Positions 20,731 through 36,338 of a stretch of 64,000 bases of DNA are shown piece after piece. Each line of letters starts with the position of its first letter. The stretch's first letter is position 1. The position numbers and the translations under genes were made by a program. Location: the NCBI GenBank assembly GCA_023266215.1, contig JAHFRQ010000001.1, forward strand, positions 310,001-374,000, in the 5' to 3' direction. The stretch comes from Gammaproteobacteria bacterium (GTDB lineage: Bacteria; Pseudomonadota; Gammaproteobacteria; Coxiellales; Coxiellaceae). The notes beneath the pieces were generated by a model, which had not been told where the DNA came from, did not search any database, and saw only the letters and a list, made by a program, of their open reading frames with translations.

Positions 20731-20747
20731 AAAAGTATGTTATGCTA

Positions 20748-20785: not shown

Positions 20786-20817
20786 ATAGTCAATAACGGC
20801 AGAAGTCAGAGCAACCA

Positions 20818-21768
20818 TTAATCTTTGCGAGATGTTGGAATAACTTCTGCCCAATAGTAATTTTCTTTGCCCGCTAAAATAGCGGCTTTATAAAAATGAT
20901 GTGGCCAGTCAGCATGATTAAAATTCCAGGCCTCTTTTCCTAATCCAAAAAATGGGATTTTCGACCGACTGGTTATGTCGACTAATATATTTTCTGACAA
21001 TGATTTTTCAAAATTATTATCAGCAATCCAAGCCTCTAAACTACGATCTGTGTGCACAATAAAATAAGATTTTTCGCCCTTCTTGTTAATGCACAAAAAG
21101 CTACCCTGTTTATCTATAAGATAATATTCGGTTATACTTTTTGTTTTGCAATAGGCAGTGAAAAAATCAATAAAGACAGGATCGGTCAGCGCAAGTTTGT
21201 GCTCTGTTTCTAAATACGCCAGCAATGGTGCAGATATTTTTTGAAAATAGCGCTGTGTCAACTCGGATAAATGAAAAACGAGCTGATCTTCCATGTGCTG
21301 ATCGCCCTTTCGAATAAAACGTTGAATATAATTATGATTAAATCCTTCGATCGCTTTTTCTTGATCTGCAAAACCCGTTAATAGAATTTTGGGAATAAAC
21401 AGATCAGGGCAGGCTTTTGCAAATTCAAATCCATTCATATCAGGCATCTGATAATCAATTAACATGGCCGTAACTTCTCGGTGACGATTGGGGTCAGTTG
21501 AAATTTCGGCAATAGCTGTAATATCAAAGTCAATCGGTGTGTGCTGCAAAATGCCATAATTCTCGTCGTTTTTGATACTTTTTAAAAAGCTTTTTTGCTC
21601 TAAGGGTGATTGATAATGATTTAAAAAATATAGAGCTTCTTTTCCTGATAAGAAAGTTTCAATAGAATTTCGCTCTTCTAAAACGAGCTTAACACAAGCA
21701 AGCAAAGTCTTGTCATCATCGATATAAAGCCAAGTACTAGGATAATAAAATAAAGGTAAACTTTTCAT
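20818..21768 (-). CDS. Response-regulator receiver protein with insertion and unknown output domain
   Basis: A 316-residue protein. Acidic pair YIDDDKTLL (residues ~15-20), phospho-acceptor in MLIDYQMPDMNGFEF (residues ~112-126), conserved Thr in ILLTGF and Lys in FIRKGD mark a receiver domain. About 45 extra residues (KSFLKSIKNDENYG ... DPNRHREV) sit before the phospho-Asp strand, which is unusual. The C-terminal half (residues ~190-316) has no recognised DNA-binding motif. Last gene of the operon with kinase and HTH regulator, 16 nt downstream of the latter. Likely the kinase's partner. Confidence 0.75.
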   Translation of the reverse strand: MKSLPLFYYPSTWLYIDDDKTLLACVKLVLEERNSIETFLSGKEALYFLNHYQSPLEQKSFLKSIKNDENYGILQHTPIDFDITAIAEISTDPNRHREVTAMLIDYQMPDMNGFEFAKACPDLFIPKILLTGFADQEKAIEGFNHNYIQRFIRKGDQHMEDQLVFHLSELTQRYFQKISAPLLAYLETEHKLALTDPVFIDFFTAYCKTKSITEYYLIDKQGSFLCINKKGEKSYFIVHTDRSLEAWIADNNFEKSLSENILVDITSRSKIPFFGLGKEAWNFNHADWPHHFYKAAILAGKENYYWAEVIPTSRKD

Positions 21769-21784
21769 TTTTCAATTCTCACGA

Positions 21785-22423
21785 TTAATTTTTAAAAATT
21801 TTATGCGACTCAATCACAACGCCCAATATTTTTGCTTCTTTTGGATCAAAGGCAATTGTTTTTAAGTCAGCTGCTAGCGGATGAAAATATTTATGCCGGC
21901 CTTCCGCGCTATATTTTTTTAAGACTGCTGCGGCATCGCCTTTAAAACTAATTAAAACATAATCCCCACTTTCAGGCTGCGCATTGGGATTAATAATAAT
22001 TGAAGTTCCACTATAAAAAACAGGCTCATATATATTATTTTTAATGAGCACTGAAAAAATGTTTGTATAATCCAATGCGTAATCTTGCGCTTGCCAGCGA
22101 AGCCAATGAGCTGGCGCTGTTAAATAATTTTTATAATCACGTGCTTCATTAACGGTTAACTCTGGAATTGACATCGCGGGCTGAATTTTTAATTTTTCAT
22201 CTAGCTCAGCTCGACCTAGTAATTGCTCAATAGTCACGCCAAAATAATCTGCAATTAACGTTAAAGTCGATATACGCGGATCGCTAACATCACCTGACAT
22301 CAAACGATGCACCGTTGGCGTTGGCAAATTAATTTCTTTTGCGAGCGCATTTCCCGTTAAATTCGACTGATTTAAAAGGCATTTTAGCACGCTCATCAAA
22401 TTAGCTTGTTCTTTCTGACTCAT
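21785..22423 (-). CDS. HTH transcriptional regulator with S24/LexA-like C-terminal domain
   Basis: An XRE-type helix-turn-helix of 212 residues total (residues ~8-65; GNALAKEINLPTPTVHRLMSG is the recognition part) followed by a LexA/CI-like beta domain (residues ~115-205). The region aligned with the Ser of S24 peptidases (SMEP) reads NIYEP, so the nucleophile appears missing; a Lys pair is present in AVLKKY. A non-cleaving regulator that senses by another route is likely. Its ATG overlaps the kinase stop (ATGA), and the receiver gene follows. Confidence 0.75.
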   Translation of the reverse strand: MSQKEQANLMSVLKCLLNQSNLTGNALAKEINLPTPTVHRLMSGDVSDPRISTLTLIADYFGVTIEQLLGRAELDEKLKIQPAMSIPELTVNEARDYKNYLTAPAHWLRWQAQDYALDYTNIFSVLIKNNIYEPVFYSGTSIIINPNAQPESGDYVLISFKGDAAAVLKKYSAEGRHKYFHPLAADLKTIAFDPKEAKILGVVIESHKIFKN

Positions 22424-24525
22424 TGCTCATCCATCCTGAGTACTATTTTAAAAGCAAAAAATTTGGGAATCATTTGAATATTATTTTCTGCACAAAATTG
22501 CTGAATGTGAATTTCATCAGATCGGCTTGTCACTAGAAATATTCTAGATGCTTCTGATTTACTCAATAAAATAATGTCAATTAAATCTAATCCGTTGTAT
22601 GGTTTTCCAGAAAATTCATAATCAATTAAATAAGTACAGATATTATTTTTATTTTTTTCAATAATAGAAAGCAAGGCTTCTTTTGATTTTGCATATTGCA
22701 AATCAATATTACCGCTCAGTCCCTTAAATCTTTCCTGCCAGGCATGAAAAATGGAAATACTATCATCAACACAAATAACGGTTGAATTTTTTTGAAAAAA
22801 TAATTCATCTAAAAACCAATCGGGGGATTTTTGCAAGGGCAGCGTAATAGTCGCAAAAGCGCCCTGTGATATATTGTTATGAAGCTCAATTTTACCTCCC
22901 CATTGCGACAATGTTTCTTTTGCATGAAAGAGGCCTAACCCAGAACCTGATTTTTTAGTGGTAAAGCCGCGAGCAAAAAGCGATGCGCTAATTTCATCTG
23001 AAATTCCAGACCCATTGTCTGAAATAATAATTTCAACATGCTCATTATTTTTATGCAATGCGATCGTTATTTTATTGCCGTGATTTAACACTGCTTCATA
23101 GCTATTATTAATCAGATTAGTTAAAATCCGTTTCATCTCTGATCGGTCAGCTTGAACAAAAAACCCATACGCCTCGGCTGAAAAGTCATGCAAAATGCAA
23201 ATAGATGGATTTGAAAATGCAGCGCGCCTTTCTGATATAACATAATCCAGTAAAACTGCAATTTGAATAGACGCATCCTGAAACTCTGCAGATTCAGGTA
23301 GAACATTTTTCTTGTCTAAATTATTGGTAATATCTCTAATATGATTAATGGAGTCTCTCAGTAAAATATATTTTGACTCCTCAATTTCTGGCAGGCGCGT
23401 AATAATCATTTCGAGTGCAGTAAGCGGTGAGCGGATGTCGTGGGCGACTTGGGCGGCAATTTTTGTCATTGCCTTATTTCGCTCAGCTTCAATTAATCTT
23501 TCTTCATTTTTTTTAATTATTTTTAAAAGTTTATTAATATGGCTGCTCAGCGCCGAAATTTCATCTTTTCCGATGACATCAACATTTTGAAATACACTAT
23601 TTGATATAATTTTATCTAACTGACTGTGTAAATTTTTAAAATTGGCAATTACCCTTTCAGTTAGGTATTTTGAAATGAAAAATCCAAACACAATAAAAAA
23701 TAAATCAATAATTGAAATTGATAGTAACAGTGATTGTAATGTTTTATTGATCGACGCTGTCGTAACTTTTGCTTTTAGAATATAATAGTAGTTTCCTGCG
23801 GAGCTAGATATGCGTTTAGTTTTGCACTCGCAGCAATCAGGAAGGCTAAGGTAAACAATTTCTTTTAAATGAATCACGTTTTTTGTATTATCTAAATTTT
23901 TATTGTACACGTCACCCAGTAATTGGTAGTTTGGTGTGTATACTTTTATATTTACGAAATCATGCTTAGTTTGCAGTGCTGTCTTAAGAAGCTTATCGAT
24001 AAAATCAAGGCGAATACTTGACTCAAGTATTCTAGTATGACTCTTATTTGACGTCATAATATACTTAAAGGGGCCTGGCATAGATTCACCGCTGCTTAGA
24101 ATAATAGGCGTTCTGAATATTTTACTTTCTCCTGTTATCAATCCTTTGTATGCTGCGCAGTAATGAAATATATTATCGGTAATTTTTCCGTTTGTGGATC
24201 TAATAAATTTCCCTTTCGCATTTGTAACAAAAAAATTGCTAACTTTCAGTTTGCTTGCAAGAGACTTAAGCTGATTGTCTGATGGCAATCCGTCATGTGC
24301 CTCAGTATCTTTCAGGACATACAACGCATCAATCCCTCTTATTTCTACCGCATTCTCAAATTGCAAAAGCATCGACCCAATTTGATTTAAATCCAACTTG
24401 TACGTACTTATGAATATCTTTTTTATATAGTGACTCGCATAAATATATGAAACACAACCAATCAACACCGATAGCAATGTTGAAATTGTAAATATGGCAA
24501 AAAAAACTTTGTTTCTAAAAGTCAT
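22420..24525 (-). CDS. Hybrid sensor histidine kinase with C-terminal receiver
   Basis: Membrane kinase of 701 residues. TM1 (residues ~7-30), periplasmic sensor (~31-265, with a CCEC cysteine cluster near 231-234), TM2 (~266-287), HAMP-like linker, then HisKA with His362 in AAQVAHDIRSPLTA, HATPase with N box NLINNSYEAV (470-479), DNGSGI and GSGLGL, and a receiver (581-701) with DD at 587-588 and Asp635 in YLIDYEF. It follows the methyltransferase by 2 nt. Ligand unknown. Its place beside the hydrazine cluster makes a sensing role for the product or a precursor conceivable. Confidence 0.88.
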   Translation of the reverse strand: MTFRNKVFFAIFTISTLLSVLIGCVSYIYASHYIKKIFISTYKLDLNQIGSMLLQFENAVEIRGIDALYVLKDTEAHDGLPSDNQLKSLASKLKVSNFFVTNAKGKFIRSTNGKITDNIFHYCAAYKGLITGESKIFRTPIILSSGESMPGPFKYIMTSNKSHTRILESSIRLDFIDKLLKTALQTKHDFVNIKVYTPNYQLLGDVYNKNLDNTKNVIHLKEIVYLSLPDCCECKTKRISSSAGNYYYILKAKVTTASINKTLQSLLLSISIIDLFFIVFGFFISKYLTERVIANFKNLHSQLDKIISNSVFQNVDVIGKDEISALSSHINKLLKIIKKNEERLIEAERNKAMTKIAAQVAHDIRSPLTALEMIITRLPEIEESKYILLRDSINHIRDITNNLDKKNVLPESAEFQDASIQIAVLLDYVISERRAAFSNPSICILHDFSAEAYGFFVQADRSEMKRILTNLINNSYEAVLNHGNKITIALHKNNEHVEIIISDNGSGISDEISASLFARGFTTKKSGSGLGLFHAKETLSQWGGKIELHNNISQGAFATITLPLQKSPDWFLDELFFQKNSTVICVDDSISIFHAWQERFKGLSGNIDLQYAKSKEALLSIIEKNKNNICTYLIDYEFSGKPYNGLDLIDIILLSKSEASRIFLVTSRSDEIHIQQFCAENNIQMIPKFFAFKIVLRMDEQ

Positions 24526-24527
24526 TA

Positions 24528-25307
24528 CTATTTCTTTAATTGCAATATTGTATCATTTAGCACTAATGAAATACATCCATCTTGCTGTATAAACTCGGAC
24601 ATTTTCCGTTGAATTTCGATTTCTGGAATTTTCTCAAGATAATTACTTAATAAAAATTTCATTAGTTGCTGTATTGATTTTGTTTCAAATTGACAAGAAA
24701 AATTTGATGCGATGTATTTTTTTTGAATGTCTGAAAATATCTTAGTGCAAACTAATTCAACATCATGATTCGTATGATATGGAATTTCCATTTTGATAAG
24801 CTCAAAAAAATAGGCCCATAATTTAATAAGATCATTATTTTCATTTGCTACAACAATCCACGCTTCACCATTTTCTTTTAAGCAGGCGCGAATGGTGCTT
24901 AAAACAGGCTGAATTTCTGGAACATAATATATTGAGTGGCACATAATTATAATATCAGCAAAGTTCTCTGGCATTTTATCAACAGTATCAAAGATAGATA
25001 GTTCTATATTTGCTTCGTTAAATTTTTTAGTCGCTGATTCACGATAGTCGGAAACTGGTTCAAGCAAAGCTAATTTCAGACGCAAGCGACTGTTTGCTAT
25101 GCTCTTGTATAAATCAAATAATAATTCACCATCGCCCCCGCCAAAATCTAAAATACAAATCTCAGTTTTATTTCGGATAAAGGAATCGAGCATTTCTAGA
25201 AGCTTGCTCATATTTTCACGATGCTCTGTTGAATGCGCTTGAAAAAATTGATATTCTTTCACTAGATTTGAAAAGTCTTTTTTGGTATCTTCGTCTCGCA
25301 TAACCAC
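24528..25307 (-). CDS. Class I SAM-dependent methyltransferase
   Basis: A 259-residue methyltransferase with motif I ILDFGGGDGELLFDLY, acidic strand LALLEP, then a third strand around IIIMCHSIYYVPE, the usual methyltransf_11/12 layout. The C-terminal ~80 residues are variable and helical. It lies 33 nt after the cyclase gene and 2 nt before the kinase, so it belongs to that operon. Methyl acceptor unknown; a small acid such as a pathway intermediate is possible but only inferred from location. Confidence 0.75.
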   Translation of the reverse strand: MVMRDEDTKKDFSNLVKEYQFFQAHSTEHRENMSKLLEMLDSFIRNKTEICILDFGGGDGELLFDLYKSIANSRLRLKLALLEPVSDYRESATKKFNEANIELSIFDTVDKMPENFADIIIMCHSIYYVPEIQPVLSTIRACLKENGEAWIVVANENNDLIKLWAYFFELIKMEIPYHTNHDVELVCTKIFSDIQKKYIASNFSCQFETKSIQQLMKFLLSNYLEKIPEIEIQRKMSEFIQQDGCISLVLNDTILQLKK

Positions 25308-25340
25308 TCTCCATTTAATGCCAATTATACTGAAAGTTAA

Positions 25341-25988
25341 TCATATGTTGTTAACCACAAACACCCGCACTTGCAATCCATCCATACCAGCAATTTTAAA
25401 TGATGGAATAATTAAAAATTGGTAACGGCCCTGTGTTGTGTTTTTTAAATCTAGATTTTCAATGATTAAAATATTATTTGAAAGTAAAATATGATGAACG
25501 GGCAATTCAATCGCTGAATATTGATCAACACTCAAATAGTCTATTCCAACTATTTTCACTTTTGATTCAACCAAAAATTCTGCAGCCTCTGGCTCAATAT
25601 AAACAGCATGATCAGAAAAATTTCCGGTCTTTGATAAATTAGAATTGTTAGTTTTAAAGAAAATAATATCGTTTTGAAAAAAACTATATTCTTTGAGAAA
25701 ATTAAGATTAATTGATCTGTGCTCACTCGGGACTTCAATAATAAGCCCATCGCCTTGTAAATCATCGTGCGAATAATCTGAGCTTGTTTTCCCGCCGCGC
25801 ATAACATGCGCTGGAAAATCAATATGCGTACCCAGATGATTGCTCAAGCTAATTTTCGATAAACAATAATGATTATTTTTATCATCTAATTTTACAATTA
25901 CTTGCTTTTCAAAAGCTGGATCACCTGGAAAGACAGTTAATTCTGAAGACATTTCAACCGTGAGATCTTGCAATTTTAATTTATTCAT
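25341..25988 (-). CDS. Cyclase family (KynB-like) metal-dependent amidohydrolase
   Basis: A 215-residue protein of the cyclase/arylformamidase (PF04199-type) family. The metal-binding motif HLGTHIDFPAHV with a nearby GGKTSSDY and the later HAVYIEPEAAEFL and GIDYLSVD are all present. Family members hydrolyse formyl-kynurenine and similar amides or lactones. It is the first gene of the minus-strand operon, facing the small gene at 26167 and the N-hydroxylase. The substrate is not predictable; no other tryptophan-degradation gene is visible. Confidence 0.8.
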   Translation of the reverse strand: MNKLKLQDLTVEMSSELTVFPGDPAFEKQVIVKLDDKNNHYCLSKISLSNHLGTHIDFPAHVMRGGKTSSDYSHDDLQGDGLIIEVPSEHRSINLNFLKEYSFFQNDIIFFKTNNSNLSKTGNFSDHAVYIEPEAAEFLVESKVKIVGIDYLSVDQYSAIELPVHHILLSNNILIIENLDLKNTTQGRYQFLIIPSFKIAGMDGLQVRVFVVNNI

Positions 25989-26153: not shown

Positions 26154-26399
26154 AAAGGAGCGATTGATGTCAAGTCGAAATAAAAAGCCTCGCTTCAAGA
26201 TAGTAGCGACTCGATATGACGAGATAACACACAACGTGCAGTTGTTGGATATCCAGAATAATGAATTATTCACGGTAAAAGCGCTGGAAATCTTAAAATA
26301 CGATCACTTTTTAACAGAGCTTTCGCCCGATGATCTACGAAGACTCATTTATGGCGTCCATCATGATTTGATGATTTTGGAGAAAAAGGAGATGAGTGA
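26154..26399 (+). repeat. 246-bp perfect direct repeat, left copy
   Basis: Identical base for base, by eye, to 35774-36019. It contains the ribosome site and nearly the whole small gene (26167-26433). A weaker similarity continues upstream: ACACTTGCCGAGTTAACATT here against ACACTTGTCGAGTTAATATT in the right copy. The two copies are 9620 bp apart in the same orientation and enclose the biosynthetic operon. Confidence 0.95.
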
Positions 26400-26433
26400 C
26401 TTTGTGACGCACTTCGAACTTGAGAATACTTGA
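26167..26433 (+). CDS. Small protein of unknown function, copy 1
   Basis: An 88-residue basic protein beginning MSSRNKKPRFKIVATRYDEI and containing LLDIQNNELFTVKALEILKY and LSPDDLRRLIYGVHHDLMIL. I do not recognise it. It has no membrane segment or signal peptide. The ATG at 26167 follows an AAGGAG site seven bases away and is preferred to the TTG at 26164. The first 77 residues are identical to copy 2; the C-terminal tail (DFVTHFELENT) differs. It sits at the head of the biosynthetic operon, about 80 nt before the N-hydroxylase; a regulatory role is possible. Confidence 0.7.
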   Translation: MSSRNKKPRFKIVATRYDEITHNVQLLDIQNNELFTVKALEILKYDHFLTELSPDDLRRLIYGVHHDLMILEKKEMSDFVTHFELENT

Positions 26434-26514: not shown

Positions 26515-27849
26515 ATGACCAACAATGAAATTAATTTTAAAATTTTTGACCTAATTGGCATTGGCATCGGCGCATTTAATTTGGGCTTGGCTGCATTAAT
26601 GCAAAAAACTAATTTAACCTATAAATTTCTTGATCTCAAAGAAAGCTTTGATTGGCACGATGGAATGTTGCTTGAGAATGCTAAATTGCAAGTTCATTTT
26701 TTGAAAGATTTGGCAAGTTGCGTCGACCCCGCCAATCCATATACTTTTCTTTCTTATTTATCAGAAAAGGGACGAATCTATCAATTTTTAAATAGAAAGC
26801 AGAGCGTAGTGTCAAGGCACGAATTTAGCGATTATTTTAAATGGGCTGCCGCTCAAATTCCAAATCTATGCTTTGGAGAAAAAATTCTTGATGTGCGCTA
26901 TAGCAATAACTTATTTAATATCATTACTAAAAAAAGTAAATTTTTTGCAAAAAACATTGTGGTGGGAACTGGTCGAACTCCGTATATTCCGATTCGTTTT
27001 AGAGAATTTCTAAGTAAAAATTTTTTTCATAATTATAAATTTAAGCAGTCGCTTAAAGAGCTGGATTTTGCTAACAAGCGAATCGCTATTATTGGTGGCG
27101 GACAAAGTGGTGCTGAGGTATTTGATACTCTTATTTCTTTTCAAAGCAAACCAAAAGAAATTATTTGGGCTTCGAAGCGTGTCAATTTTCAAACATTGGA
27201 AGATAGCTGCTTTGCAAATGAATTCTATACGCCGAACTACGTAAAATATTTTTACAGTTTGCCGTCAAATCTTCGCGAGCAAAAATTAGATGAACAGCGA
27301 TTAACAAGTGATGGAATTACGCAAGAATTGTCTAATGAAATTTATAATAAATTATATGAGTTGAAGTATCTTCGTCCGTCAACTATGAGCTTTGAATTAC
27401 TACCACATCAGGAACTATCCAGGGTAATTAAAAAAGGTGATGGCTATCTCATTACTTTATTTAATAAGGAGCAAGGGGATCTAACTGAATATACTGCTGA
27501 TATTGTTATTTTAGCAACAGGCTATCAGTCTTGCATTTCTGAATGTCTGAAAAATCTACCTCTGGGAATCTCAAATACAAAAAGCCCATCCATAAATATA
27601 GATTATTCAGTAAATTGGCGCTGTTCTTCAACCAACAAAATATTTTTGCAGAATGGGGCGAGGCTTACCCATGGTGTAGCAGATCCTAATTTAAGCCTAG
27701 CCGCTTGGCGAAACGCTATCATTATAAATTCGTTATCGAACGAGCAAATTTATAAAGTTGATACGTGTGAACCAATTGTAAATATTAATCAATTTAATAT
27801 TCTTCAAAAAAGTAGTTTAGATGCTAATTTTTCGTTAGAGGCGGCATAA
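26515..27849 (+). CDS. Flavin-dependent L-lysine/L-ornithine N-hydroxylase
   Basis: NADPH-dependent monooxygenase of the IucD/PvdA (K_oxygenase) family that hydroxylates the side-chain amine of lysine or ornithine; about 444 residues. The FAD motif is GIGIGAFNLGLA, the substrate-region block LQVHFLKDLASCVDPANPYTFLSYL is characteristic, the NADPH motif is IIGGGQSGAEVFDTL and a late ATGYQ closes it. I chose ATG 26515 (GGGA six bases upstream). Its stop overlaps the next ATG by 1 nt. No siderophore synthetase is present. Pairing with a cupin/MetRS gene points to hydrazine formation; lysine as substrate is expected but not shown. Confidence 0.9.
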   Translation: MTNNEINFKIFDLIGIGIGAFNLGLAALMQKTNLTYKFLDLKESFDWHDGMLLENAKLQVHFLKDLASCVDPANPYTFLSYLSEKGRIYQFLNRKQSVVSRHEFSDYFKWAAAQIPNLCFGEKILDVRYSNNLFNIITKKSKFFAKNIVVGTGRTPYIPIRFREFLSKNFFHNYKFKQSLKELDFANKRIAIIGGGQSGAEVFDTLISFQSKPKEIIWASKRVNFQTLEDSCFANEFYTPNYVKYFYSLPSNLREQKLDEQRLTSDGITQELSNEIYNKLYELKYLRPSTMSFELLPHQELSRVIKKGDGYLITLFNKEQGDLTEYTADIVILATGYQSCISECLKNLPLGISNTKSPSINIDYSVNWRCSSTNKIFLQNGARLTHGVADPNLSLAAWRNAIIINSLSNEQIYKVDTCEPIVNINQFNILQKSSLDANFSLEAA

Positions 27850-29825
27850 TGTCCAATGCTCTTGAAAAAATTAAAAAAATAAGTCTCATTAATGAAAAAG
27901 ATTACATAATTGGTCTTAACTGTCGCCTATTAATTTTTGAACCATTTTCGAAAACCATGCCTCACAATCATTCTGAAGGCGAGGTGTGGATTTTAATTTC
28001 AGGAGAAATGACTGTTAAAATAAATGATCAAATCATCGACCTCAAGATGGGTAATTTTTTAAAAATAGACCCTCTTGTAAAGCATCAAATTATAAACGGT
28101 GAGCATTCAAGTGTTTTGCACGTATTATGGTGGAATAATGCGAAAAAATTAAAAAATGTTGTCGAACACTTTGTGGATTCTTCCCCAAAAGAAAGCAAGT
28201 ATCAATTAATTATTCCGGCCATTGTTACTCCAAATGGACCTATGCATCTAGGACACGCTGGAGGACCATATATAATAGCGGATGTTTTACGGCGTGCTTT
28301 TAAAATGCAGGGTATCCGCACCTCTACTTTTCTTGGAACGCTAGGACATCAGGAGCATATTCAAATTGCAGCACACAAAGATGGCTCTGATTATTATGCA
28401 TTGGCCAAAAAAAATACTGATTCGATTTTGCAATCTTTTGCGCTTCTTGATATTGAGTATGATTTTTTTCTACATCCATCACCACCAGCTAGATTTAAAG
28501 AAATCATGAGTGAAATTTTTTATGAGCTGTATCATCAGAAAATTATTTACGAAAAGGAAGCTTCGGTTCCCTTTGACAATGACAATAACTGCTTTGTTGT
28601 TGATGCTCATCTCAAAGGTCAGTGCCCAATGTGTCGTGCATTCGTAAGCGGAGTTGAGTGCGAAAACTGCGGCCTCTATCTGGATGATTCGCTTCTACTT
28701 AAACCATCAACGTTAAAAAATGGCACCGTAGAAACAAGACCCTTAAAAAGACTTTACCTAAAGCTCGAACCGATTTCGCAAAAATTAGCGGAACATTATC
28801 AAACCATGTGGCTAACTACAAGCATGCGCACCTATCTTGATCATTGGTTTTCCAGAGATCTTCCAGATGTATGTATAAGCAACCCCTTAACCGAAGGGAT
28901 TAATATTCCTCTGCCGGGTTACAAAAAACAATATTTTACCGTGGCTTTTGAGCATGTTGCGCGATATTTTTTAGCGTTTGAAATGTTTTCGCAAAAAAAA
29001 GGGAGGCCACAAAGCTGGAAAGATTTTGTTTTAAGCGACGAGCATGAACTTACTATCACATTCGGTAATGATAATTTTTTTGCTCGAACTATTTTGGCTC
29101 CCTCTATCTTGATAGCATTAAAATGCGAGGCTGTAATTCCACGCTATTTTCATAGCAACCATTTCATGAATTTAAACAAAAGCAAGTTTTCTACGAGTAA
29201 GAATAATGCTATCTGGGTAAATGAATTTGTTAACGAACATAATAGAGAATTTTTACGCTTCTATTTGATTTATATGCGTCCAGAATTTAGCGAAACGAAT
29301 TTTTCTGTTGACGAATTCAAAAAATTCAATCAAGCATTGTGGAAAGAAGGTTTTGCAAATTATTTATTTAAAATTCAGTCGATTCTAGATAAGCATGAAT
29401 CAAAAATATTACCTGGCGCTGGGGAATTCAGTCATCATGAAGTAAGTTTCTTGCGCATCACTCAAGAGTTGGGCAAAAATATTAATCGATCAATTGCGCC
29501 GCGAAATTTTAATTCTACTTTTTTATGCTCTCAAATTGAAAGGTATGTGCTGGAAGCAATTCGATTTGCAGATAGCGCTACCTCATGGAAACATATGCAG
29601 CTTCATACCCCGCGATCTTCATTGCTAGCAACACAAACCAGACTGTTGCTATATTCTTTAGCAGTTCTAATTGTTGGTTTACACCCTGTTATGCCAAACT
29701 TAACAACACAGTTAGCAAATTGCTTGGGGCTGGGGTCCATAACCACTGCATTATTAGCAGAAGATTGGTTGCAGAAGCCTTTTAATGCTTTTTCGCTTAA
29801 TTCAATTATTGAAATACTACAGTAA
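27849..29825 (+). CDS. Cupin/methionyl-tRNA-synthetase-like fusion (predicted hydrazine synthetase)
   Basis: A 658-residue fusion. Residues ~20-95 are a cupin with metal ligands His39, His41, Glu45 and His79. Residues ~115-650 resemble class I MetRS: HLGH at 133-136 (HIGH motif), a zinc knuckle with Cys259, 262, 271 and 274, KFSTS at 446-450 (KMSKS variant) and a helical tail. Known cupin/MetRS enzymes (Spb40 of the s56-p1 pathway, Tri28 of triacsin) use ATP to adenylate an amino acid and join it to N-hydroxylysine, forming an N-N bond. The gene follows the N-hydroxylase directly, as expected. It is not a housekeeping MetRS. Partner amino acid unknown. Confidence 0.88.
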   Translation: MSNALEKIKKISLINEKDYIIGLNCRLLIFEPFSKTMPHNHSEGEVWILISGEMTVKINDQIIDLKMGNFLKIDPLVKHQIINGEHSSVLHVLWWNNAKKLKNVVEHFVDSSPKESKYQLIIPAIVTPNGPMHLGHAGGPYIIADVLRRAFKMQGIRTSTFLGTLGHQEHIQIAAHKDGSDYYALAKKNTDSILQSFALLDIEYDFFLHPSPPARFKEIMSEIFYELYHQKIIYEKEASVPFDNDNNCFVVDAHLKGQCPMCRAFVSGVECENCGLYLDDSLLLKPSTLKNGTVETRPLKRLYLKLEPISQKLAEHYQTMWLTTSMRTYLDHWFSRDLPDVCISNPLTEGINIPLPGYKKQYFTVAFEHVARYFLAFEMFSQKKGRPQSWKDFVLSDEHELTITFGNDNFFARTILAPSILIALKCEAVIPRYFHSNHFMNLNKSKFSTSKNNAIWVNEFVNEHNREFLRFYLIYMRPEFSETNFSVDEFKKFNQALWKEGFANYLFKIQSILDKHESKILPGAGEFSHHEVSFLRITQELGKNINRSIAPRNFNSTFLCSQIERYVLEAIRFADSATSWKHMQLHTPRSSLLATQTRLLLYSLAVLIVGLHPVMPNLTTQLANCLGLGSITTALLAEDWLQKPFNAFSLNSIIEILQ

Positions 29826-29839
29826 AAACAGGAGCATAT

Positions 29840-31009
29840 ATGTTTCAAGAACTACAGGCGTTACCAGAGGACCCCATTTTACGCTACAGCACGGAATTCA
29901 ATCATGATAATCGCTCACATAAAATAAATCTTACTGTGGGCATGTATTATGATGAAGAAAGTCGAATTCCTGTGTTTCAGGCCGTCCAATTAGCAGAAAA
30001 AGCAATTCTAGAAGCCGGCCACAATAAAAATTACTTTCCTATTGACGGACCTATCGAATATCGTACGCAGGTTTCTGAATTAATCTTGGGAAAGCAGGAT
30101 GAACGGGTAACTGTTTGCTACGCTCCTGGCGGCACTGGAGCGGTTCGATTGGGGGCAGAGCTCATTAAAAAAGCGCGCCCTTCGTCGGCAGTTTGGATCA
30201 GCGATCCCACCTGGAATGTTCATTGTAGTATATTTCAGCAATGTGGCTTTGTGATAAATAAATACCAGTATTTAGAGTCAAACGGCACGCTTCGTTTTTC
30301 TCAAGTTATGCAGTGTCTTTCTCAAGCCAAACCTGGGGATTGTATTGTTTTGCATGGCTGTTGTCATAACCCCACCGGCATTGATCCTACGCCTTCTCAG
30401 TGGAATGCGCTTTTTGAATTACTCAAGGAAAAAAAAGTTACGCCATTTTTTGACATGCCATATCATGGATTTGCCAATGGATTGGAAGAAGATATGTCAC
30501 ATATTCGACTGGCAATAGAAAAATTTGATGATGTCATGGTGGCATATTCTTTTTCAAAAACAATGGGGCTGTATTGCGATAGAGTCGGCGCCTTGCTTGT
30601 TAAAACAAAAAATGACAGCGCGGCAAATATCATCGGAAGTCACTTACGTTTTCTTGCTCGAATGATGTTTTCCAACCCTCCTGCACACGGAATTAGAATT
30701 GTTGAATGCGTATTAAAAAATAAATTTCTGCGAAAACAATGGCAGGAAGAATTAGACTCCTGCAGAAAACGGTTAAAATTTGCGAGAAAAAAAATGGCTC
30801 TTGAGCTTAGTTCCGCCAACTGCAATTTTGCACATCTGGGGAGTGGTAATGGGATGTTCTCGCTTACAGGCCTTAATTCCGATGAGGTATTGAGCCTCAA
30901 AAAAAGATTTGGAATATACCTTTTGCAAAATGGTAGGATTAATATCGCGGCCCTTAACGATCGTAATATTCCTATTATTTGCAACGCTATTCTGCAAGTT
31001 ATTAATTAA
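29840..31009 (+). CDS. PLP-dependent aminotransferase (aspartate/aromatic class)
   Basis: Fold-type I transaminase of 389 residues. The start LQALPEDPILRYSTEF..NLTVGMYYDEE is typical of the AspC/TyrB group; HNPTGIDPT (residues ~176-184), DMPYHGF (205-211) and SFSKTMGLYCDRVG with the PLP lysine Lys240 are seen. An AGGAG site precedes the ATG. Because it lies inside the N-N-forming operon, it probably works on an amino or hydrazino acid intermediate; an ordinary aspartate transaminase role cannot be excluded. Confidence 0.88.
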   Translation: MFQELQALPEDPILRYSTEFNHDNRSHKINLTVGMYYDEESRIPVFQAVQLAEKAILEAGHNKNYFPIDGPIEYRTQVSELILGKQDERVTVCYAPGGTGAVRLGAELIKKARPSSAVWISDPTWNVHCSIFQQCGFVINKYQYLESNGTLRFSQVMQCLSQAKPGDCIVLHGCCHNPTGIDPTPSQWNALFELLKEKKVTPFFDMPYHGFANGLEEDMSHIRLAIEKFDDVMVAYSFSKTMGLYCDRVGALLVKTKNDSAANIIGSHLRFLARMMFSNPPAHGIRIVECVLKNKFLRKQWQEELDSCRKRLKFARKKMALELSSANCNFAHLGSGNGMFSLTGLNSDEVLSLKKRFGIYLLQNGRINIAALNDRNIPIICNAILQVIN

Positions 31010-31027
31010 TTTTCGCGAGAGGAAATT

Positions 31028-31696
31028 GTGAAAGAAAAAATCTCATACCAACATCCTAAAATATTGGATTCATCTGCTGAAAATGTTTGTCACGCAATTA
31101 AAGTAGTTGAAAATGGCGGGGTTGCTATTTTGCCTGCAGATACAGTGTACGGTATTTTTGCAAGATCAGATATGCATGATACTGTGGAGCGCGTTTACAG
31201 CATAAAAAAAAGGGAGAAAAGGAAGCCTTTCGTTATTTATACTAATGCAGAAAAAGTCGAAATGATAGCTTATGTGAATGATATTGGTCGCAAGTTTATA
31301 AATCAAGTATGGCCAAAAGCTCTGTCGCTTATTTTACCCAAGCGTCCAATCATTTCAAATTGGTTTACACATAATAAAGACACTATCGCTGTCATGACTG
31401 CGCGAAACTTTATCATTTCTAGCCTAGTTAAAAATATAAAATATCCCATTTTAGGCACAACTGTAAATATTTCAGGTGAGCCAGAGTTAAAAAAAGGAAT
31501 TGATATTATTCGTTTTGTAGACGAAGTAGACGTTATCATCATAGATGATACAATTCCTATTTATAACAAACCTTCCACAATGATTGACTGTACTCTCAAT
31601 CCACCTCGAATTGCGCGTCTGTCTTCTTTAACGCTAAGGGAGCTACAAAAAATTGTACCGGAACTTCAAGTTGATCTCAGCAGGAAAATTTCATGA
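31028..31696 (+). CDS. Sua5/YrdC/YciO-like protein in the biosynthetic operon
   Basis: A 222-residue YrdC-fold protein starting at GTG 31028 (AGAGGA upstream). VAILPADTVYGI, the basic KKREKRKPF loop and TTVNISGEPE correspond to the ATP/bicarbonate-binding motifs of TsaC/Sua5, which make threonylcarbamoyl-AMP. Sequence LLPADTVYG..KR..KPF is well kept, so the protein may be active. Inside this operon it may carboxylate and adenylate an amine or hydrazine nitrogen, giving a carbamoyl-type group; this is inference. It overlaps the GcvT-like gene (ATGA). Confidence 0.82.
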   Translation: MKEKISYQHPKILDSSAENVCHAIKVVENGGVAILPADTVYGIFARSDMHDTVERVYSIKKREKRKPFVIYTNAEKVEMIAYVNDIGRKFINQVWPKALSLILPKRPIISNWFTHNKDTIAVMTARNFIISSLVKNIKYPILGTTVNISGEPELKKGIDIIRFVDEVDVIIIDDTIPIYNKPSTMIDCTLNPPRIARLSSLTLRELQKIVPELQVDLSRKIS

Positions 31697-32838
31697 TAAA
31701 AGCCACTACATTTTCACGTGTGACACCATATTATCAAAACCATTTAGAGTCAGGTGCAGAAATGATGCTAAAAGGCGGATGGTTGCGTCCAGCGAAATAT
31801 ACATCAACCGAAACAGAGGTAAACAATACTCGCAGAGACATTGGAATTATTGATGCGCACTCTATGGGAAAATTTGAAATATCTGGAAGGGATGCATTTT
31901 CATTTATGCAGTACCTTATCACCAATGACCTGAATAAAATCAAGCAAGGCAGAGGTGGGATATACACTTGCTTGTGTAATGAAAATGGCGGTGTAATCGA
32001 TGATGTTGTTGTTTATTTTATTGATAGAGAAAATTTTTATTTTATTACCAATACGCTTTCCGTATCACGTGTTGATGAATGGATTCGTTGTGTTGCTAAA
32101 AAAAATAATTTTAATGTGCATATACAAAACTCAACTAACAGCATCGCCTATTTAGCATTGCAAGGGCCAAAATCTCCATTAATGATTAATTTGCTTTTTG
32201 GCAGCAATGGAGTCTCTTTGAATTATTTTGAATTCACGAAAATTAACTTGGAAAATGTTCCTGTTCTGTTGGCAAGAACTGGGTATACCGGTGAGATTGG
32301 CTATGAGCTTAATTTTCCTTCCGAATTTGGTTATGTCATTTGGAAATATCTACTTGAGAAGGGAAAACCATACGGCATCACACCAGTTGGTGGTTTAGCT
32401 GTGCAAGTATTAAGAATAGAAAAAGCATATCTGTCGCACGGCACCGATATGTCTGTTGACAATAATCCATTTGAGGTTGGGCTGGGCTGGACGCTTAGTT
32501 TCACAAAAGGCGATTTCCTAGGACGCGAGGAGTTATTGCTTATCCAAAAAAATGGTGTAACGAAAAAATTGTTTGGGTTCGAAATAGAAAGCTGTGCGAA
32601 AGAATGCCAGAAAGGAAATCCAATTTTTTGCAAAGGCAATTATGCTGGTTATATAACATCATGTTGCAAAAGCCCAACGCTTAATAAAATTATTGCTCTT
32701 GGTTTTATAGAAAAACCTTACTGGGAAGATAATCATTTTGCATTAAAAGGAGATGCATTATCTATCTTAAAAAAGGTCAATACCCCTTTCTATGATAATA
32801 AGAAAATCAGAGTCAAAGCCGACTCCAAGCACATTTAA
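31693..32838 (+). CDS. GcvT-like folate-dependent aminomethyltransferase homologue
   Basis: A 381-residue protein of the glycine-cleavage T-protein family. DIGIIDAHSMGKFEISGRDA, GGVIDDVVVY with the catalytic-type Asp (103/104), ALQGPKSP, ARTGYTGEIGYEL and the C-terminal barrel (FLGREELL onward) are all present. Neither gcvH nor gcvP is nearby, so glycine cleavage is unlikely. It could move a one-carbon unit between tetrahydrofolate and an amine or hydrazine intermediate. It is coupled to the Sua5-like gene by a 4-nt overlap. Confidence 0.85.
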   Translation: MIKATTFSRVTPYYQNHLESGAEMMLKGGWLRPAKYTSTETEVNNTRRDIGIIDAHSMGKFEISGRDAFSFMQYLITNDLNKIKQGRGGIYTCLCNENGGVIDDVVVYFIDRENFYFITNTLSVSRVDEWIRCVAKKNNFNVHIQNSTNSIAYLALQGPKSPLMINLLFGSNGVSLNYFEFTKINLENVPVLLARTGYTGEIGYELNFPSEFGYVIWKYLLEKGKPYGITPVGGLAVQVLRIEKAYLSHGTDMSVDNNPFEVGLGWTLSFTKGDFLGREELLLIQKNGVTKKLFGFEIESCAKECQKGNPIFCKGNYAGYITSCCKSPTLNKIIALGFIEKPYWEDNHFALKGDALSILKKVNTPFYDNKKIRVKADSKHI

Positions 32839-32855
32839 TAATTGATGGAAATTGA

Positions 32856-34073
32856 ATGCAAAATAACTTTGAGATTTATAACAAGTACATTTTTATTATA
32901 TATAGAATGCTTTCAAGAGCTTACTTTCATCTTCCTATTTTGTTGATTTTTCTTTTAACAAAATTGTCTAGTTTAATCTGTGCTGAATTTATGCTAGCGA
33001 TTTACGCCTTGTCAATTGCTGCTTTTTCAACCCTAAATACATTTTTAATAAAAAAAGAAATTAAATTAAAGTATATAATTGCAGGTGGCGAAATATGCAA
33101 GGCGATTGGATTATTCCTTATTGTTTTCTTTAACTCTTCAGAGTTATATATAGCTTTGGGGCAGTTAATTGGTGGTCTCGGGTTTGCATTGTGTATTGGA
33201 ACAGACTCTAGTCTTCTGCGTTCACAATACTTAAATAATGGACAGGAAGTGTATCAAAAAATAGAGTCTAGCTCTATGTCATTAGTTTTTCTTGTCATAT
33301 TTCTAGCTGGAAACATTGGGAGTTTTCTATATTCTATTCATTCTACGCTTCCATTTTATATTAGCATTTTTACAACGCTAGTCTCATCACTAATTATTTT
33401 ATCATTTCATGAGCCGCAGAAAAAATCTGATGATATTTTAAAAAATGCATCATATACCGTCGGTTTGCAAAATAAAATTTTTAACATCGATTCAATGATC
33501 ATTTATTGGATGTGCTATTACGTGATAGTTAGAGCAACTGTACTTGCATTATTTGTTGGCTTTTTACCACTATTACTGGAAAGCAAAGCAATTTCGATAG
33601 AGTATTTTGGATTTTTCCTTGGATTCTTTTCCATCTGCGCTGCTGTAAGCGCTCGTTATATTACCAAGAGTTTTCTTGACTGTCACAAATTATTTTCTTC
33701 GATGCTGACAGCGATTTTGCTATGCATGAGCGTGTCTCTTTTTACCTTTTTCAGTAGCAATATGGGATGGCTAATTGGTATGGCCTTATTAGGTGCTGCA
33801 GCCGGAGCTGTTAGACCTCTTGCTCTTTCTCAAATTAGTCAAAAAATTTCTTCCATTATTGAAACAAAAATTATTCTTTCAAAGATGGAAGCCATGTACG
33901 GTATAGCAAATGGATTTTTATTATTTATTGGTGGAATTCTAGCTATTCTTTATGGCTTAAGGTCATGCTTTCTCCTAATAAGCCTGTTACCAATTTTATT
34001 TACGATTAGCGCCCCGCTTGTAACCTTTTTAAGAGCGCGTAAAAATAAAGTGCAACCCATTCATCAAAGCTAG
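32856..34073 (+). CDS. MFS transporter (probable product exporter)
   Basis: A 405-residue protein with about twelve hydrophobic helices and a charged central loop near residues 185-205 (SFHEPQKKSDD), the layout of the major facilitator superfamily. Loop motifs are weak, so the substrate class cannot be named. It lies 17 nt after the GcvT-like gene and 19 nt before the dehydrogenase, and the most economical role is export of, or self-protection from, the pathway's product. Confidence 0.8.
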   Translation: MQNNFEIYNKYIFIIYRMLSRAYFHLPILLIFLLTKLSSLICAEFMLAIYALSIAAFSTLNTFLIKKEIKLKYIIAGGEICKAIGLFLIVFFNSSELYIALGQLIGGLGFALCIGTDSSLLRSQYLNNGQEVYQKIESSSMSLVFLVIFLAGNIGSFLYSIHSTLPFYISIFTTLVSSLIILSFHEPQKKSDDILKNASYTVGLQNKIFNIDSMIIYWMCYYVIVRATVLALFVGFLPLLLESKAISIEYFGFFLGFFSICAAVSARYITKSFLDCHKLFSSMLTAILLCMSVSLFTFFSSNMGWLIGMALLGAAAGAVRPLALSQISQKISSIIETKIILSKMEAMYGIANGFLLFIGGILAILYGLRSCFLLISLLPILFTISAPLVTFLRARKNKVQPIHQS

Positions 34074-34092
34074 CTCTTACGGAATAGAATAT

Positions 34093-35259
34093 ATGAATAT
34101 TGTTGTATTTGGTGCGGGTGAAATGGGTAAAGCAATATGCACTTATTTTTTAAAATTTCAAAAAATTGAGAGTCTCACATTAATTGATATTAATAGCAGT
34201 CAACTTAAAAGAGCTTCAGAAAATTTATCAAGATATGTCTGCATTGATAAACTGATATTGAATAATTCCGATAATATTGAAGAAATTATTTCTGCATGTA
34301 ATATAGTTTTTGCTGCTGTACCATGGCAAGCTCATGCTGAAATTATTAATTTAGTATGTCAATATGACAAACCAATGCTTTCGGTCACCAGGCCCAACTA
34401 CAGTGAAATATCAAAATTGGAAAATCAGCTGCAAAAAATGGTCAATCCAGTAGTGGTGGGCTGCGGCTTAGAGCCTGGGTTAACGGAAATAATGGCACTT
34501 TATTGTGCGAACTTATTTGATCATTTAGATGAGCTGCATATCAAGTGTGGGGGAATAACACGCATACCTTCTGACAATATTTTTAAGCATAAAACATTGT
34601 TTGGAACTCGCTATCTGCCAATCTCAATGCGAGATGCCTATACTATTAAAAACAAGAAAAAAATCAAGATTGCTCGATTTTCAGACGCAGAAGAAATTGA
34701 TATCTTGAATTTGGGAAAGCTGGAGGCATGGCATGATGGAATGGTGCCATGGTTATATAAATATCCAGAAATTGCATCAGCGCACACGGTTACACAAAAA
34801 ACACTGCGTTGGCCAGGGTTTTCAGAAACCGTCAACCAGTTAGATCGACTGGGTCTTTTAAGTGAAGAGCAAATTCAAATTGGCGAAATTGCGCTTTCCC
34901 CAAAACAATTTCTTGAGTATTTTTACGAGCATGACGTTAAATTAAATAATGATAATAATGTATCTTTATTAAAAATCATAGCAACAGGAAAGCACAAAAA
35001 AAATAATATGAAAAAAGTTTTCTTAAGTCTTATAGCCACAAATCGCACTGATATGGGATTAAATTCAATGGCATTTATTACTGGATTTTCGGTATCTCTT
35101 ATTGGCGTGATGCTGCTCCAAGGGAAAATAAATGAGCATGGCTTTGTCAGGCCCGAGAAAATTATTTGTGGCGAGCCATGTAATTTTTTGATGGAAAGTT
35201 TAAAATCATTCGGTATTGAAATTTCCATCAACACAGGGATCTACTCTGACAAATCTTAA
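34093..35259 (+). CDS. Saccharopine-dehydrogenase-like oxidoreductase
   Basis: A 388-residue NAD(P)-dependent enzyme: Rossmann motif VVFGAGEMGKA at the start, TLIDINSSQLKRA after strand 2, VVVGCGLEPGLTEIMA in the middle, as in saccharopine dehydrogenase and lysine 6-dehydrogenase. Saccharopine is an N6-substituted lysine, and the expected N-N product of the first two enzymes is also one, so oxidation at lysine C6 to release the free hydrazino acid is chemically plausible. This is inference. Last intact gene of the operon. Confidence 0.82.
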   Translation: MNIVVFGAGEMGKAICTYFLKFQKIESLTLIDINSSQLKRASENLSRYVCIDKLILNNSDNIEEIISACNIVFAAVPWQAHAEIINLVCQYDKPMLSVTRPNYSEISKLENQLQKMVNPVVVGCGLEPGLTEIMALYCANLFDHLDELHIKCGGITRIPSDNIFKHKTLFGTRYLPISMRDAYTIKNKKKIKIARFSDAEEIDILNLGKLEAWHDGMVPWLYKYPEIASAHTVTQKTLRWPGFSETVNQLDRLGLLSEEQIQIGEIALSPKQFLEYFYEHDVKLNNDNNVSLLKIIATGKHKKNNMKKVFLSLIATNRTDMGLNSMAFITGFSVSLIGVMLLQGKINEHGFVRPEKIICGEPCNFLMESLKSFGIEISINTGIYSDKS

Positions 35260-35298: not shown

Positions 35299-35720
35299 AT
35301 GAACACATTAACATTACCTCGACAAATTGCCATAGGAGATTTTTTTCTGCCATTTTTATTTATTATTATGTGGAGTTCTGGTTATGTTGTTGGGAAGCTG
35401 GGCTTGCATTTTGCAGGGCCGTATACATTAATATTTATTCGATTTTCAAGTGCTGCTGCAATCATGTTCTTAGTATCTTTGTTTACGAAAGCACGTTGGC
35501 CAACATCTCGGCTTGGCTTTCGTTAATTAATTCAATCGGAGCAGTTACAGTTTTGTTTGTATTAATGAAGCGCGGTGAAGCTAGCAAAGTCTCAAGTCTC
35601 TTTCATTTAATTCCAGGCGTGACCGCAATGATGAGCTATGTCATTTTGGGTGAAACACTATCTCCCATTGTATTTATGGGCTTTGCAGTAACCGCACTGG
35701 CGGTTTATTTGAGTCACTAA
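35299..35720 (+). pseudogene. EamA/DMT-family transporter remnant
   Basis: The first frame gives the N-terminal ~75 residues of an EamA permease (FIIMWSSGYVVGKLGLHFAG) and stops at 35526. A second frame carries the C-terminal part (WLSLINSIGAVTVLFVLMKR, then SLFHLIPGVTAMMSYVILGE). Together they cover only about half of a normal ~290-residue EamA protein, so both an internal deletion of roughly 150 residues and a frameshift have occurred. It is not functional. It lies inside the repeat-bounded segment. Confidence 0.85.
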
Positions 35721-35773: not shown

Positions 35774-36019
35774 AAAGGAGCGATTGATGTCAAGTCGAAA
35801 TAAAAAGCCTCGCTTCAAGATAGTAGCGACTCGATATGACGAGATAACACACAACGTGCAGTTGTTGGATATCCAGAATAATGAATTATTCACGGTAAAA
35901 GCGCTGGAAATCTTAAAATACGATCACTTTTTAACAGAGCTTTCGCCCGATGATCTACGAAGACTCATTTATGGCGTCCATCATGATTTGATGATTTTGG
36001 AGAAAAAGGAGATGAGTGA
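35774..36019 (+). repeat. 246-bp perfect direct repeat, right copy
   Basis: Identical to 26154-26399 (see there). Together the copies bracket the N-hydroxylase to EamA-remnant segment. The right copy is preceded by only a shortened version of the upstream region and no clear -10 box. Confidence 0.95.
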
Positions 36020-36044
36020 GATGAGAAGAAAATATTTGGGCTGA
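35787..36044 (+). CDS. Small protein of unknown function, copy 2
   Basis: An 85-residue second copy of the gene at 26167, with the same ATG and AAGGAG site. The first 77 residues are identical; the end EMRRKYLG replaces DFVTHFELENT because identity stops at the repeat boundary. Promoter elements seen before copy 1 are partly lost, so it may be silent. Function unknown. Confidence 0.6.
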   Translation: MSSRNKKPRFKIVATRYDEITHNVQLLDIQNNELFTVKALEILKYDHFLTELSPDDLRRLIYGVHHDLMILEKKEMSEMRRKYLG

Positions 36045-36060
36045 TTCACTCGTCAAAATC

Positions 36061-36124
36061 TACTATTGGTTTTGGGGAGCCGCGAATGGAGCCTTGTACT
36101 CAAGGCGAAATAAGCGGATTCTTT
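36061..36124 (-). repeat. Dispersed hairpin element, copy A
   Basis: Inverted relative to copy B at 36274. In the element's own direction: ATCCGCTT, a hairpin GCCTTG-AGTA-CAAGGC, CGCGG, then a conserved ACCAATAGTA end. Other copies are at 47988, 59459 and, partial, 60198. Confidence 0.75.
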
Positions 36125-36273
36125 TGGTTCACGCACTTGATGATATTTAGTTTGAATATCGAAAGCGCACCAAAAACAAGGCGATCTATTTTGTGATCTA
36201 TTTTGTCAGACAAACCTAATCGCCTTAATTTGCAGTTCCATTGTTCGGCACACCATGCACGTTCAAAATTCCT

Positions 36274-36338
36274 AAAGAATCCGCTTATTTCGCCTTGAGT
36301 ACAAGGCTACATTCGCGGTTCCTTCAAACCAATAGTAA
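36274..36338 (+). repeat. Dispersed hairpin element, copy B
   Basis: Facing copy A across about 150 nt, so that the pair forms a MITE-like unit of 278 nt with long inverted ends. Same core: ATCCGCTT, GCCTTG-AGTA-CAAGGC, CGCGGTTCC, ACCAATAGTA. Confidence 0.75.

What the first reader, a model, noticed from the sequence alone, without database searches (positions are those of the whole stretch)
26515..35259. Hydrazine-forming biosynthetic operon in a probable Legionellales-type gammaproteobacterium
Seen: an IucD-type N-hydroxylase gene overlaps by 1 nt a gene for a cupin fused to a MetRS-like enzyme, followed by aminotransferase, Sua5-like, GcvT-like, MFS and saccharopine-dehydrogenase-like genes with gaps under 20 nt. 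Known: lysine N-hydroxylase plus cupin/MetRS enzyme is the N-N bond-forming pair of s56-p1 and triacsin type pathways, mostly studied in actinomycetes. Inference: this operon makes a small hydrazine or azo-type metabolite, and the set of tailoring genes does not match any pathway I know.
Basis: partly seen in the sequence, partly recalled or inferred. Interest (0 to 1): 0.95.

Follow-up and report, generated by a model that had tools for sequence, protein, structure and literature searches.

The report
Hydrazine-making gene operon, Coxiellaceae-like bacterium
A small-genome gammaproteobacterium carries a compact, apparently intact set of seven genes that should join two amino acids through a rare nitrogen-nitrogen bond, with two extra tailoring enzymes not seen in the related gene clusters examined, so it probably makes an undescribed hydrazine-type compound.

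Summary
In detail: seven same-strand genes (26515-35259) with gaps of 19 nt or less, all intact. ORF2 is a cupin/MetRS-like hydrazine synthetase, not a tRNA-charging enzyme. It falls outside the MetRS clade with full support, keeps the zinc and catalytic residues of RHS1/PyrN in register (H39, H41, E45, H79), and the genome has a separate MetRS. It groups with the Rhodococcus enzyme shown to use glutamate and shares two pocket arginines with it (R372, R413), so an acidic partner amino acid, probably Glu, is predicted. ORF7 is a saccharopine-dehydrogenase-like protein of the kind found in such clusters (PyrL-type). ORF1+ORF2+ORF7 therefore most likely make an alpha-hydrazino acid (2-hydrazinoglutarate) plus allysine. 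The nearest known model is the pyrazomycin/RHS1 front end, not s56-p1/triacsin. New here are second copies of TsaC/Sua5-like and GcvT-like enzymes, far from the housekeeping ones and absent from 12 other hydrazine clusters inspected. The final product is unknown. The island lies between 246-bp identical direct repeats, is absent from the 35 other genomes of its order, and sits beside a sensor-kinase/S24-repressor module that has other cargo in relatives. Verdict: new variant of a known kind; interesting, not categorically new.

The parts
26515..27849 (+). ORF1: flavin N-hydroxylase of the IucD type, predicted L-lysine N6-hydroxylase
   Evidence: Pfam Lys_Orn_oxgnase 1.5e-102; 37% to IucD and 36.6% to the lysine hydroxylase of the Rhodococcus RHS1 cluster; nearest hit 41.5%, in a Vibrio iucABCD-like locus
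27849..29825 (+). ORF2: cupin + MetRS-like hydrazine synthetase; zinc/catalytic residues H39, H41, E45, H79; TPNG 127-130, KFSTS 446-450; pocket arginines R372 and R413
29840..31009 (+). ORF3: aspartate/aromatic-type PLP aminotransferase (Lys240, Arg274 and Arg366 kept); the only one of its type in the genome
31028..31696 (+). ORF4: TsaC/Sua5-like protein (KxR kept; SxN reads TxN), second copy beside a housekeeping TsaC at G000:C17:97000 (26% identity)
31693..32838 (+). ORF5: GcvT-like folate-binding protein, second copy beside a housekeeping GcvT at G000:C17:120039 (34% identity); NENGGxIDD and RTGYTGE kept, GARD motif lost
32856..34073 (+). ORF6: MFS exporter, predicted product export
   Evidence: Pfam MFS_1 1.4e-13; 32% to an MFS protein in a Skermanella biosynthetic cluster that also holds a TsaC-like gene
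34093..35259 (+). ORF7: saccharopine-dehydrogenase-like (LYS9-type C-terminal domain, PyrL-type), predicted to cleave the hydrazine-linked intermediate
35299..35720 (+). EamA transporter pseudogene (frameshift and internal loss)
26154..26399 (+). left copy of a 246-bp direct repeat; carries a small gene (26164-26433) whose 3' end is replaced
35774..36019 (+). right copy of the direct repeat; the small gene here (35784-36044) has the C-terminus of its genomic paralogue, so it is the complete copy
24528..25988 (-). adjacent divergent genes: arylformamidase-like 'cyclase' (25341-25988) and SAM methyltransferase (24528-25307); membership in the pathway possible, not shown
20818..24525 (-). adjacent regulatory module: sensor kinase with C-terminal receiver (22420-24525), S24/HTH repressor (21785-22423), response regulator (20818-21768)

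Best explanation
The operon makes and exports a small compound built on an alpha-hydrazino acid. Step 1 (inferred from homology): ORF1 turns L-lysine into N6-hydroxylysine. Step 2 (inferred; residues and clade tested): the MetRS-like half of ORF2 adenylates an amino acid, most likely L-glutamate, and passes it to the N-hydroxyl as an ester; the zinc cupin half rearranges the ester to an N-N-linked lysine-glutamate adduct. Step 3 (inferred): that adduct is saccharopine with one extra nitrogen, and ORF7, a saccharopine-dehydrogenase relative, cleaves it with NAD(P)+ into 2-hydrazinoglutarate and allysine. Step 4 (speculative): the AspC-type aminotransferase, the TsaC-like enzyme (which would activate an N-carboxylate with ATP) and the GcvT-like enzyme (which would move a one-carbon unit to or from folate) finish the molecule. 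ORF6 exports it. The operon entered the lineage as a unit and is probably controlled by the neighbouring sensor-kinase/S24-repressor module.
For: In-register zinc/catalytic residues against RHS1 itself (WP_007299751) and the identical spacing published for PyrN. Clade of window + Mesorhizobium + Rhodococcus enzyme, 100/99 support, with MetRS a separate clade, 100/99. Two pocket arginines shared with the glutamate-using Rhodococcus enzyme and absent from the glycine-type and other enzymes aligned. A separate genuine MetRS in the genome. Of six plasmid records with an ORF7 relative, five hold a hydrazine-synthetase cluster. No FAD oxidase of the Spb39 type in the operon, leaving ORF7 as the only cleavage candidate. 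ORF4 and ORF5 are second copies, distant from the housekeeping genes. Tight co-directional spacing.
Against: No product or activity is known. Identity of ORF2 to the glutamate enzyme is only 32%, and the arginines could be clade markers instead of specificity determinants. ORF1's best solved-structure matches are diamine hydroxylases (6xbb, 7us3) and its tree is unresolved, so a diamine substrate is not excluded. The ORF7 reaction has only been suggested for PyrL (PMC8664883); saccharopine-dehydrogenase genes in the triacsin cluster proved dispensable (PMC10445470), although those homologues in azaserine-type clusters do not match ORF7. The roles of ORF3-5 are guesses.
Confidence: 0.72

Rival explanations
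1. Same N-N chemistry, but the partner amino acid is not glutamate (aspartate, glycine, alanine, serine, tyrosine or another), giving a different hydrazino acid.
For: The family is known to use Gly, Ala, Ser, Glu and Tyr (PMC8664883, PMC11705231); the window enzyme is only 32-35% identical to its nearest relatives.
Against: Clade with the glutamate enzyme and the two shared arginines that glycine-type enzymes lack; a saccharopine-dehydrogenase-like partner fits a Lys-Glu adduct.
Confidence: 0.25
2. The AspC-, TsaC- and GcvT-like genes are not tailoring enzymes but spare, insensitive copies of targets of the hydrazine product (self-protection). Hydrazino acids attack PLP enzymes, and a threonine mimic could block TsaC.
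For: All three are relatives of housekeeping enzymes, and ORF4 and ORF5 are second copies; azaserine-type clusters carry a SerRS copy at their edge; a TsaC-like gene sits in an unrelated Skermanella cluster.
Against: ORF3 is the genome's only aminotransferase of its type, so it is not a duplicate; ORF4 and ORF5 are only 26% and 34% identical to the housekeeping copies, and ORF5 has lost the GARD motif, more like new functions than spare copies.
Confidence: 0.2
3. ORF1 hydroxylates a diamine (cadaverine, putrescine), so the hydrazine is built on a diamine and ORF7 has another task.
For: The best solved-structure matches of ORF1 are diamine hydroxylases; other family members accept N-hydroxyputrescine (PMC11705231).
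Against: Nearest sequence neighbours are the IucD type and the RHS1-cluster lysine hydroxylase; a saccharopine-dehydrogenase-like partner expects a lysyl adduct.
Confidence: 0.12
4. ORF2 is a divergent tRNA-charging MetRS or an inactive relic, and the operon makes no N-N bond.
For: Database names for the family are methionine--tRNA ligase; an EamA pseudogene lies directly downstream.
Against: Tree, cupin residues, the TPNG signature and a separate MetRS gene; all seven frames are intact.
Confidence: 0.04

Closest known systems
Pyrazomycin/formycin front end (PyrM, PyrN, PyrL; ForJ)
   Same: lysine N6-hydroxylase, cupin/MetRS fusion and saccharopine-dehydrogenase homologue together; predicted glutamate partner; formycin also uses an aminotransferase later
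   Different: no C-glycoside synthase (ForT/PrfT) or Pur-like genes in the operon; adds TsaC-like and GcvT-like genes; gammaproteobacterium
Rhodococcus jostii RHS1 cluster (plasmid loci such as L008)
   Same: hydroxylase, MetRS-like protein, zinc cupin and PyrL-type saccharopine dehydrogenase; glutamate use shown (PMC8664883)
   Different: cupin and MetRS-like are separate genes there; lysine 2,3-aminomutase, ATP-grasp and luciferase-like genes instead of aminotransferase/TsaC/GcvT; ORF2 32% identical
Mesorhizobium plasmid cluster (pM0123d, L006)
   Same: closest ORF2 found (35%, 95% coverage), with MFS, saccharopine-dehydrogenase-like and SidA-type genes in one run
   Different: no TsaC, GcvT or aminotransferase in the run; hydroxylase only 27% identical and MFS without a significant match; uncharacterised
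s56-p1 / triacsin / azaserine (Spb38-40, Tri26-28, AzsL-N)
   Same: lysine hydroxylase plus cupin/MetRS enzyme
   Different: use glycine and an FAD oxidase (Spb39 type) for cleavage; ORF2 only 22-25% identical to azaserine-type enzymes; carrier proteins and NRPS in the azaserine case

Membership tests
Cupin/MetRS hydrazine synthetases (PyrN/Spb40 family) | N-terminal zinc cupin joined to (or beside) a MetRS-like domain | tested here: met
   Cupin_2 at 30-94 and tRNA-synt_1g at 121-498
Cupin/MetRS hydrazine synthetases (PyrN/Spb40 family) | zinc ligands and the catalytic Glu (RHS1 D63, H65, E69, H103) | tested here: met
   H39, H41, E45, H79 in register; His at the first position as in the other cupins aligned
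Cupin/MetRS hydrazine synthetases (PyrN/Spb40 family) | MetRS-like part branches outside tRNA-charging MetRS | tested here: met
   MetRS clade 100/99 excludes it; own MetRS elsewhere in the genome
Cupin/MetRS hydrazine synthetases (PyrN/Spb40 family) | a flavin N-hydroxylase gene in the same cluster | tested here: met
   ORF1 overlaps ORF2 by 1 nt
Cupin/MetRS hydrazine synthetases (PyrN/Spb40 family) | ATP-dependent N-N bond formation | not testable with these tools
   needs an enzyme assay
PyrM/PyrN/PyrL (glutamate, saccharopine-dehydrogenase) subtype | PyrL-type saccharopine-dehydrogenase gene and no Spb39-type FAD oxidase | tested here: met
   ORF7 present, no FAD oxidase gene in the operon; 28-30% to Rhodococcus and Mesorhizobium partners
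PyrM/PyrN/PyrL (glutamate, saccharopine-dehydrogenase) subtype | glutamate as partner amino acid | tested here: inconclusive
   R372 and R413 shared with the glutamate enzyme and same clade; no assay; pocket residues of PyrN itself not available
Pyrazole C-nucleoside clusters (formycin, pyrazomycin) | C-glycoside synthase (ForT/PrfT) and purine-like genes in the cluster | tested here: not met
   no such gene among ORF1-7 or the adjacent divergent genes
s56-p1/triacsin/azaserine (glycine, HAA) subtype | Spb39-type FAD oxidase next to the synthetase | tested here: not met
   absent here; seen next to the synthetase in L007 and L058-L063

The most novel reading that the evidence does not exclude
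The TsaC-like and GcvT-like enzymes are true pathway enzymes: a Sua5-fold protein activates the carbamate of a hydrazino acid with ATP, and a folate protein adds or removes one carbon on the N-N unit. The operon would then make a new class of hydrazine metabolite, for example a cyclic carbazate or an N-methylene hydrazine, in an apparently host-associated lineage, switched by a sensor-kinase module that has other small biosynthetic cargo in related species.
Probability: 0.3. Interest if true: 0.82.

Novelty: new variant of a known kind. Interest (0 to 1): 0.6.

Why it matters
N-N bonds are rare in biology, and every new tailoring set shows what nature can build on a hydrazine. A seven-gene operon in a 2.1-Mb genome is small enough to rebuild in E. 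coli and assay completely. The saccharopine-dehydrogenase step, which is only suggested for PyrL in the literature found here, becomes directly testable: its substrate would be saccharopine with one extra nitrogen. If the TsaC-like and GcvT-like enzymes act on the hydrazine, two central-metabolism folds gain unexpected roles in natural-product assembly. It would also be a lead on specialised metabolites in this little-studied, small-genome family.

Tried and rejected
(1) ORF2 as a tRNA-charging MetRS: rejected by tree, residues and a separate MetRS. (2) A first scan of genome contigs with ORF2 alone found nothing; the alignment-guided scan gave only ten Mesorhizobium loci. Its two patterns were narrow, so wider occurrence is not excluded. 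(3) AlphaFold models of ORF2 (seven rows) and ORF7 (one row) had mean pLDDT 45 and 39, too poor to use; no fold search was made. (4) Rfam found no riboswitch or other RNA at gathering threshold in the window, so no known lysine or glycine switch was seen. (5) Defence-system models: no match. (6) The palindromic element behind the right repeat (36061-36337) as a mobile vehicle for the operon: rejected as a specific link, since its arms occur about a hundred times in the genome. (7) An empty site in relatives could not be shown: no other genome of the order has the repeat gene. (9) The ORF1 tree did not resolve lysine against diamine hydroxylases. (10) No open paper was found for the solved MetRS-like chains 9vq4/9l8v or for the eight-residue specificity code.

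Full report
What is there. Seven genes run on the + strand from 26515 to 35259 with spacings between a 4-nt overlap and 19 nt. Domain matches are strong for all seven: IucD-type N-hydroxylase, cupin + MetRS-like fusion, aspartate/aromatic-type aminotransferase, Sua5/TsaC-like, GcvT-like, MFS transporter, saccharopine-dehydrogenase-like. No frame is broken.

Is the fusion a hydrazine synthetase? Its best solved-structure matches are two MetRS-like chains, 9vq4 and 9l8v, at 216 bits; the next chain, 1rqg, a MetRS, scores 154 and the E. coli-type MetRS chains about 78. The genome has another MetRS, only 23% identical. In a tree of 20 sequences MetRS form one clade (100/99 support) and the window protein lies outside it, in a three-member clade (100/99) with a Mesorhizobium protein (35% identical) and the stand-alone MetRS-like protein of the RHS1 cluster in Rhodococcus. 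RHS1 (WP_007299751) is a zinc cupin shown to form N-N bonds, and its cluster uses N6-hydroxylysine and glutamate (PMC8664883). Aligned directly to RHS1, the window cupin carries H39, H41, E45 and H79 at the positions of D63, H65, E69 and H103. The spacing also equals that of the published PyrN residues H50, E56 and H90. Sequence features of these enzymes, TPNG before HLGH and KFSTS followed by NAIW, are present; the MetRS rows read YxNG instead of TPNG.

Which amino acids? Glycine-type enzymes read WVWPEMxYG and FYH in the binding-pocket region. The window, Mesorhizobium and glutamate-using Rhodococcus enzymes have an arginine at each of these two places, R372 and R413 in the window protein. 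I infer an acidic partner, glutamate first. This rests on one characterised member of the clade. The hydroxylase is nearest to IucD-type enzymes: 41.5% to an iucD-like gene in a Vibrio iucABCD-like run (gene names there are my reading of unannotated ORFs), 37% to annotated IucD and 36.6% to the RHS1-cluster enzyme. Its best solved-structure matches are diamine hydroxylases (the naming of 6xbb as a cadaverine enzyme is from memory) and the tree is unresolved. Lysine is favoured but not proven.

The cleavage step. The Lys-Glu adduct of this family is saccharopine with one nitrogen inserted. In the literature PyrL, a saccharopine-dehydrogenase homologue, was suggested to turn it into 2-hydrazinoglutaric acid (PMC8664883). 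ORF7 carries GLEPG (125), CGG (152) and TLRWPGF (237), which align with the GLDPG, CGG and TLRYxG stretches of true saccharopine reductases. Only six plasmid records hold a relative at E<1e-10, and five of these are hydrazine-synthetase clusters. The other sort of cluster, with an FAD oxidase next to the synthetase, was seen in seven of the loci inspected; the operon lacks such an oxidase. A caution: triacsin-cluster saccharopine-dehydrogenase genes were dispensable (PMC10445470), but the homologues in the azaserine-type loci have no significant match to ORF7.

The other genes. ORF3 keeps the catalytic lysine (240) and both substrate arginines (274, 366) of aspartate aminotransferase and is the only enzyme of its type in the genome. 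ORF4 and ORF5 are second copies: the genome and its relatives have housekeeping TsaC and GcvT, in this genome at 26% and 34% identity. ORF5 keeps the acidic NENGGxIDD stretch but has lost the GARD motif. Neither occurs in the 12 annotated hydrazine loci inspected. A TsaC-like gene and an MFS relative of ORF6 (32%) do sit together in an unrelated Skermanella biosynthetic cluster. Whether these enzymes tailor the product or protect the cell is open; both are given as explanations.

Setting. The operon and a broken EamA gene lie between two identical 246-bp repeats, the only copies in the genome. The repeat carries a small gene. The right copy has the C-terminus of a third paralogue and is complete; the left is truncated. 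The cupin/MetRS gene is absent from the other 35 genomes of the order (the one other match is a 25%-identical protein that falls in the MetRS clade) and from 368 other genomes drawn from the class at E<=1e-60. Acquisition as a unit is the simplest reading; base composition does not stand out. To the left, divergent, are an arylformamidase-like gene, a methyltransferase, a sensor kinase with receiver, an S24/HTH repressor and a response regulator. Kinase and response regulator recur in related genomes with other genes around them: cyclase, MFS and two SDR genes; MFS and a dioxygenase-like gene; or nothing. A second biosynthetic island elsewhere in the genome has the same pair of small gene and S24 repressor. 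Control of the hydrazine operon by this module is plausible, not shown.

Names.

Verdict. The N-N-forming core is very likely real. The pathway front end is known from pyrazomycin and Rhodococcus; the tailoring set and the host lineage are new among what was examined. I rate it a new variant of a known kind, interest 0.6.

Noticed in passing
G000:C5:200836-211598 (L077 6836-17598), outside the window: A second small biosynthetic island in the same genome: D-2-hydroxyacid dehydrogenase, permease, TauD-like, stand-alone NRPS adenylation domain, CmlA-type diiron hydroxylase, PhyH dioxygenase and LCM methyltransferase, with a paralogue of the repeat's small gene next to an S24/HTH repressor.
   Followed up: partly
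window 20818-25988 (-); L081, L086, L087: A sensor kinase / response regulator (often with an S24 repressor) module is conserved in related genomes with changing cargo (arylformamidase-like cyclase, MFS and SDRs; MFS and a dioxygenase-like gene; none). It looks like a signalling locus with swappable metabolic genes.
   Followed up: partly
window 36061-36337: Two 67-nt inverted arms, 91% complementary; the arms belong to a palindromic repeat family with about 107 matches in the genome.
   Followed up: partly
L053 7086-10194 (Skermanella mucosa plasmid pSM-2): A TsaC-like gene, HlyD and an MFS gene related to ORF6 lie in a ketosynthase/adenylation gene cluster, a second case of a TsaC-like gene in a biosynthetic setting.
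   Followed up: partly
window 20694-20790: Two 43-nt direct copies (93% identical, 54 nt apart start to start) with GGCGCACC/GGTGCG palindromic stretches, between the pilus ATPase gene and the regulatory module.
   Followed up: no
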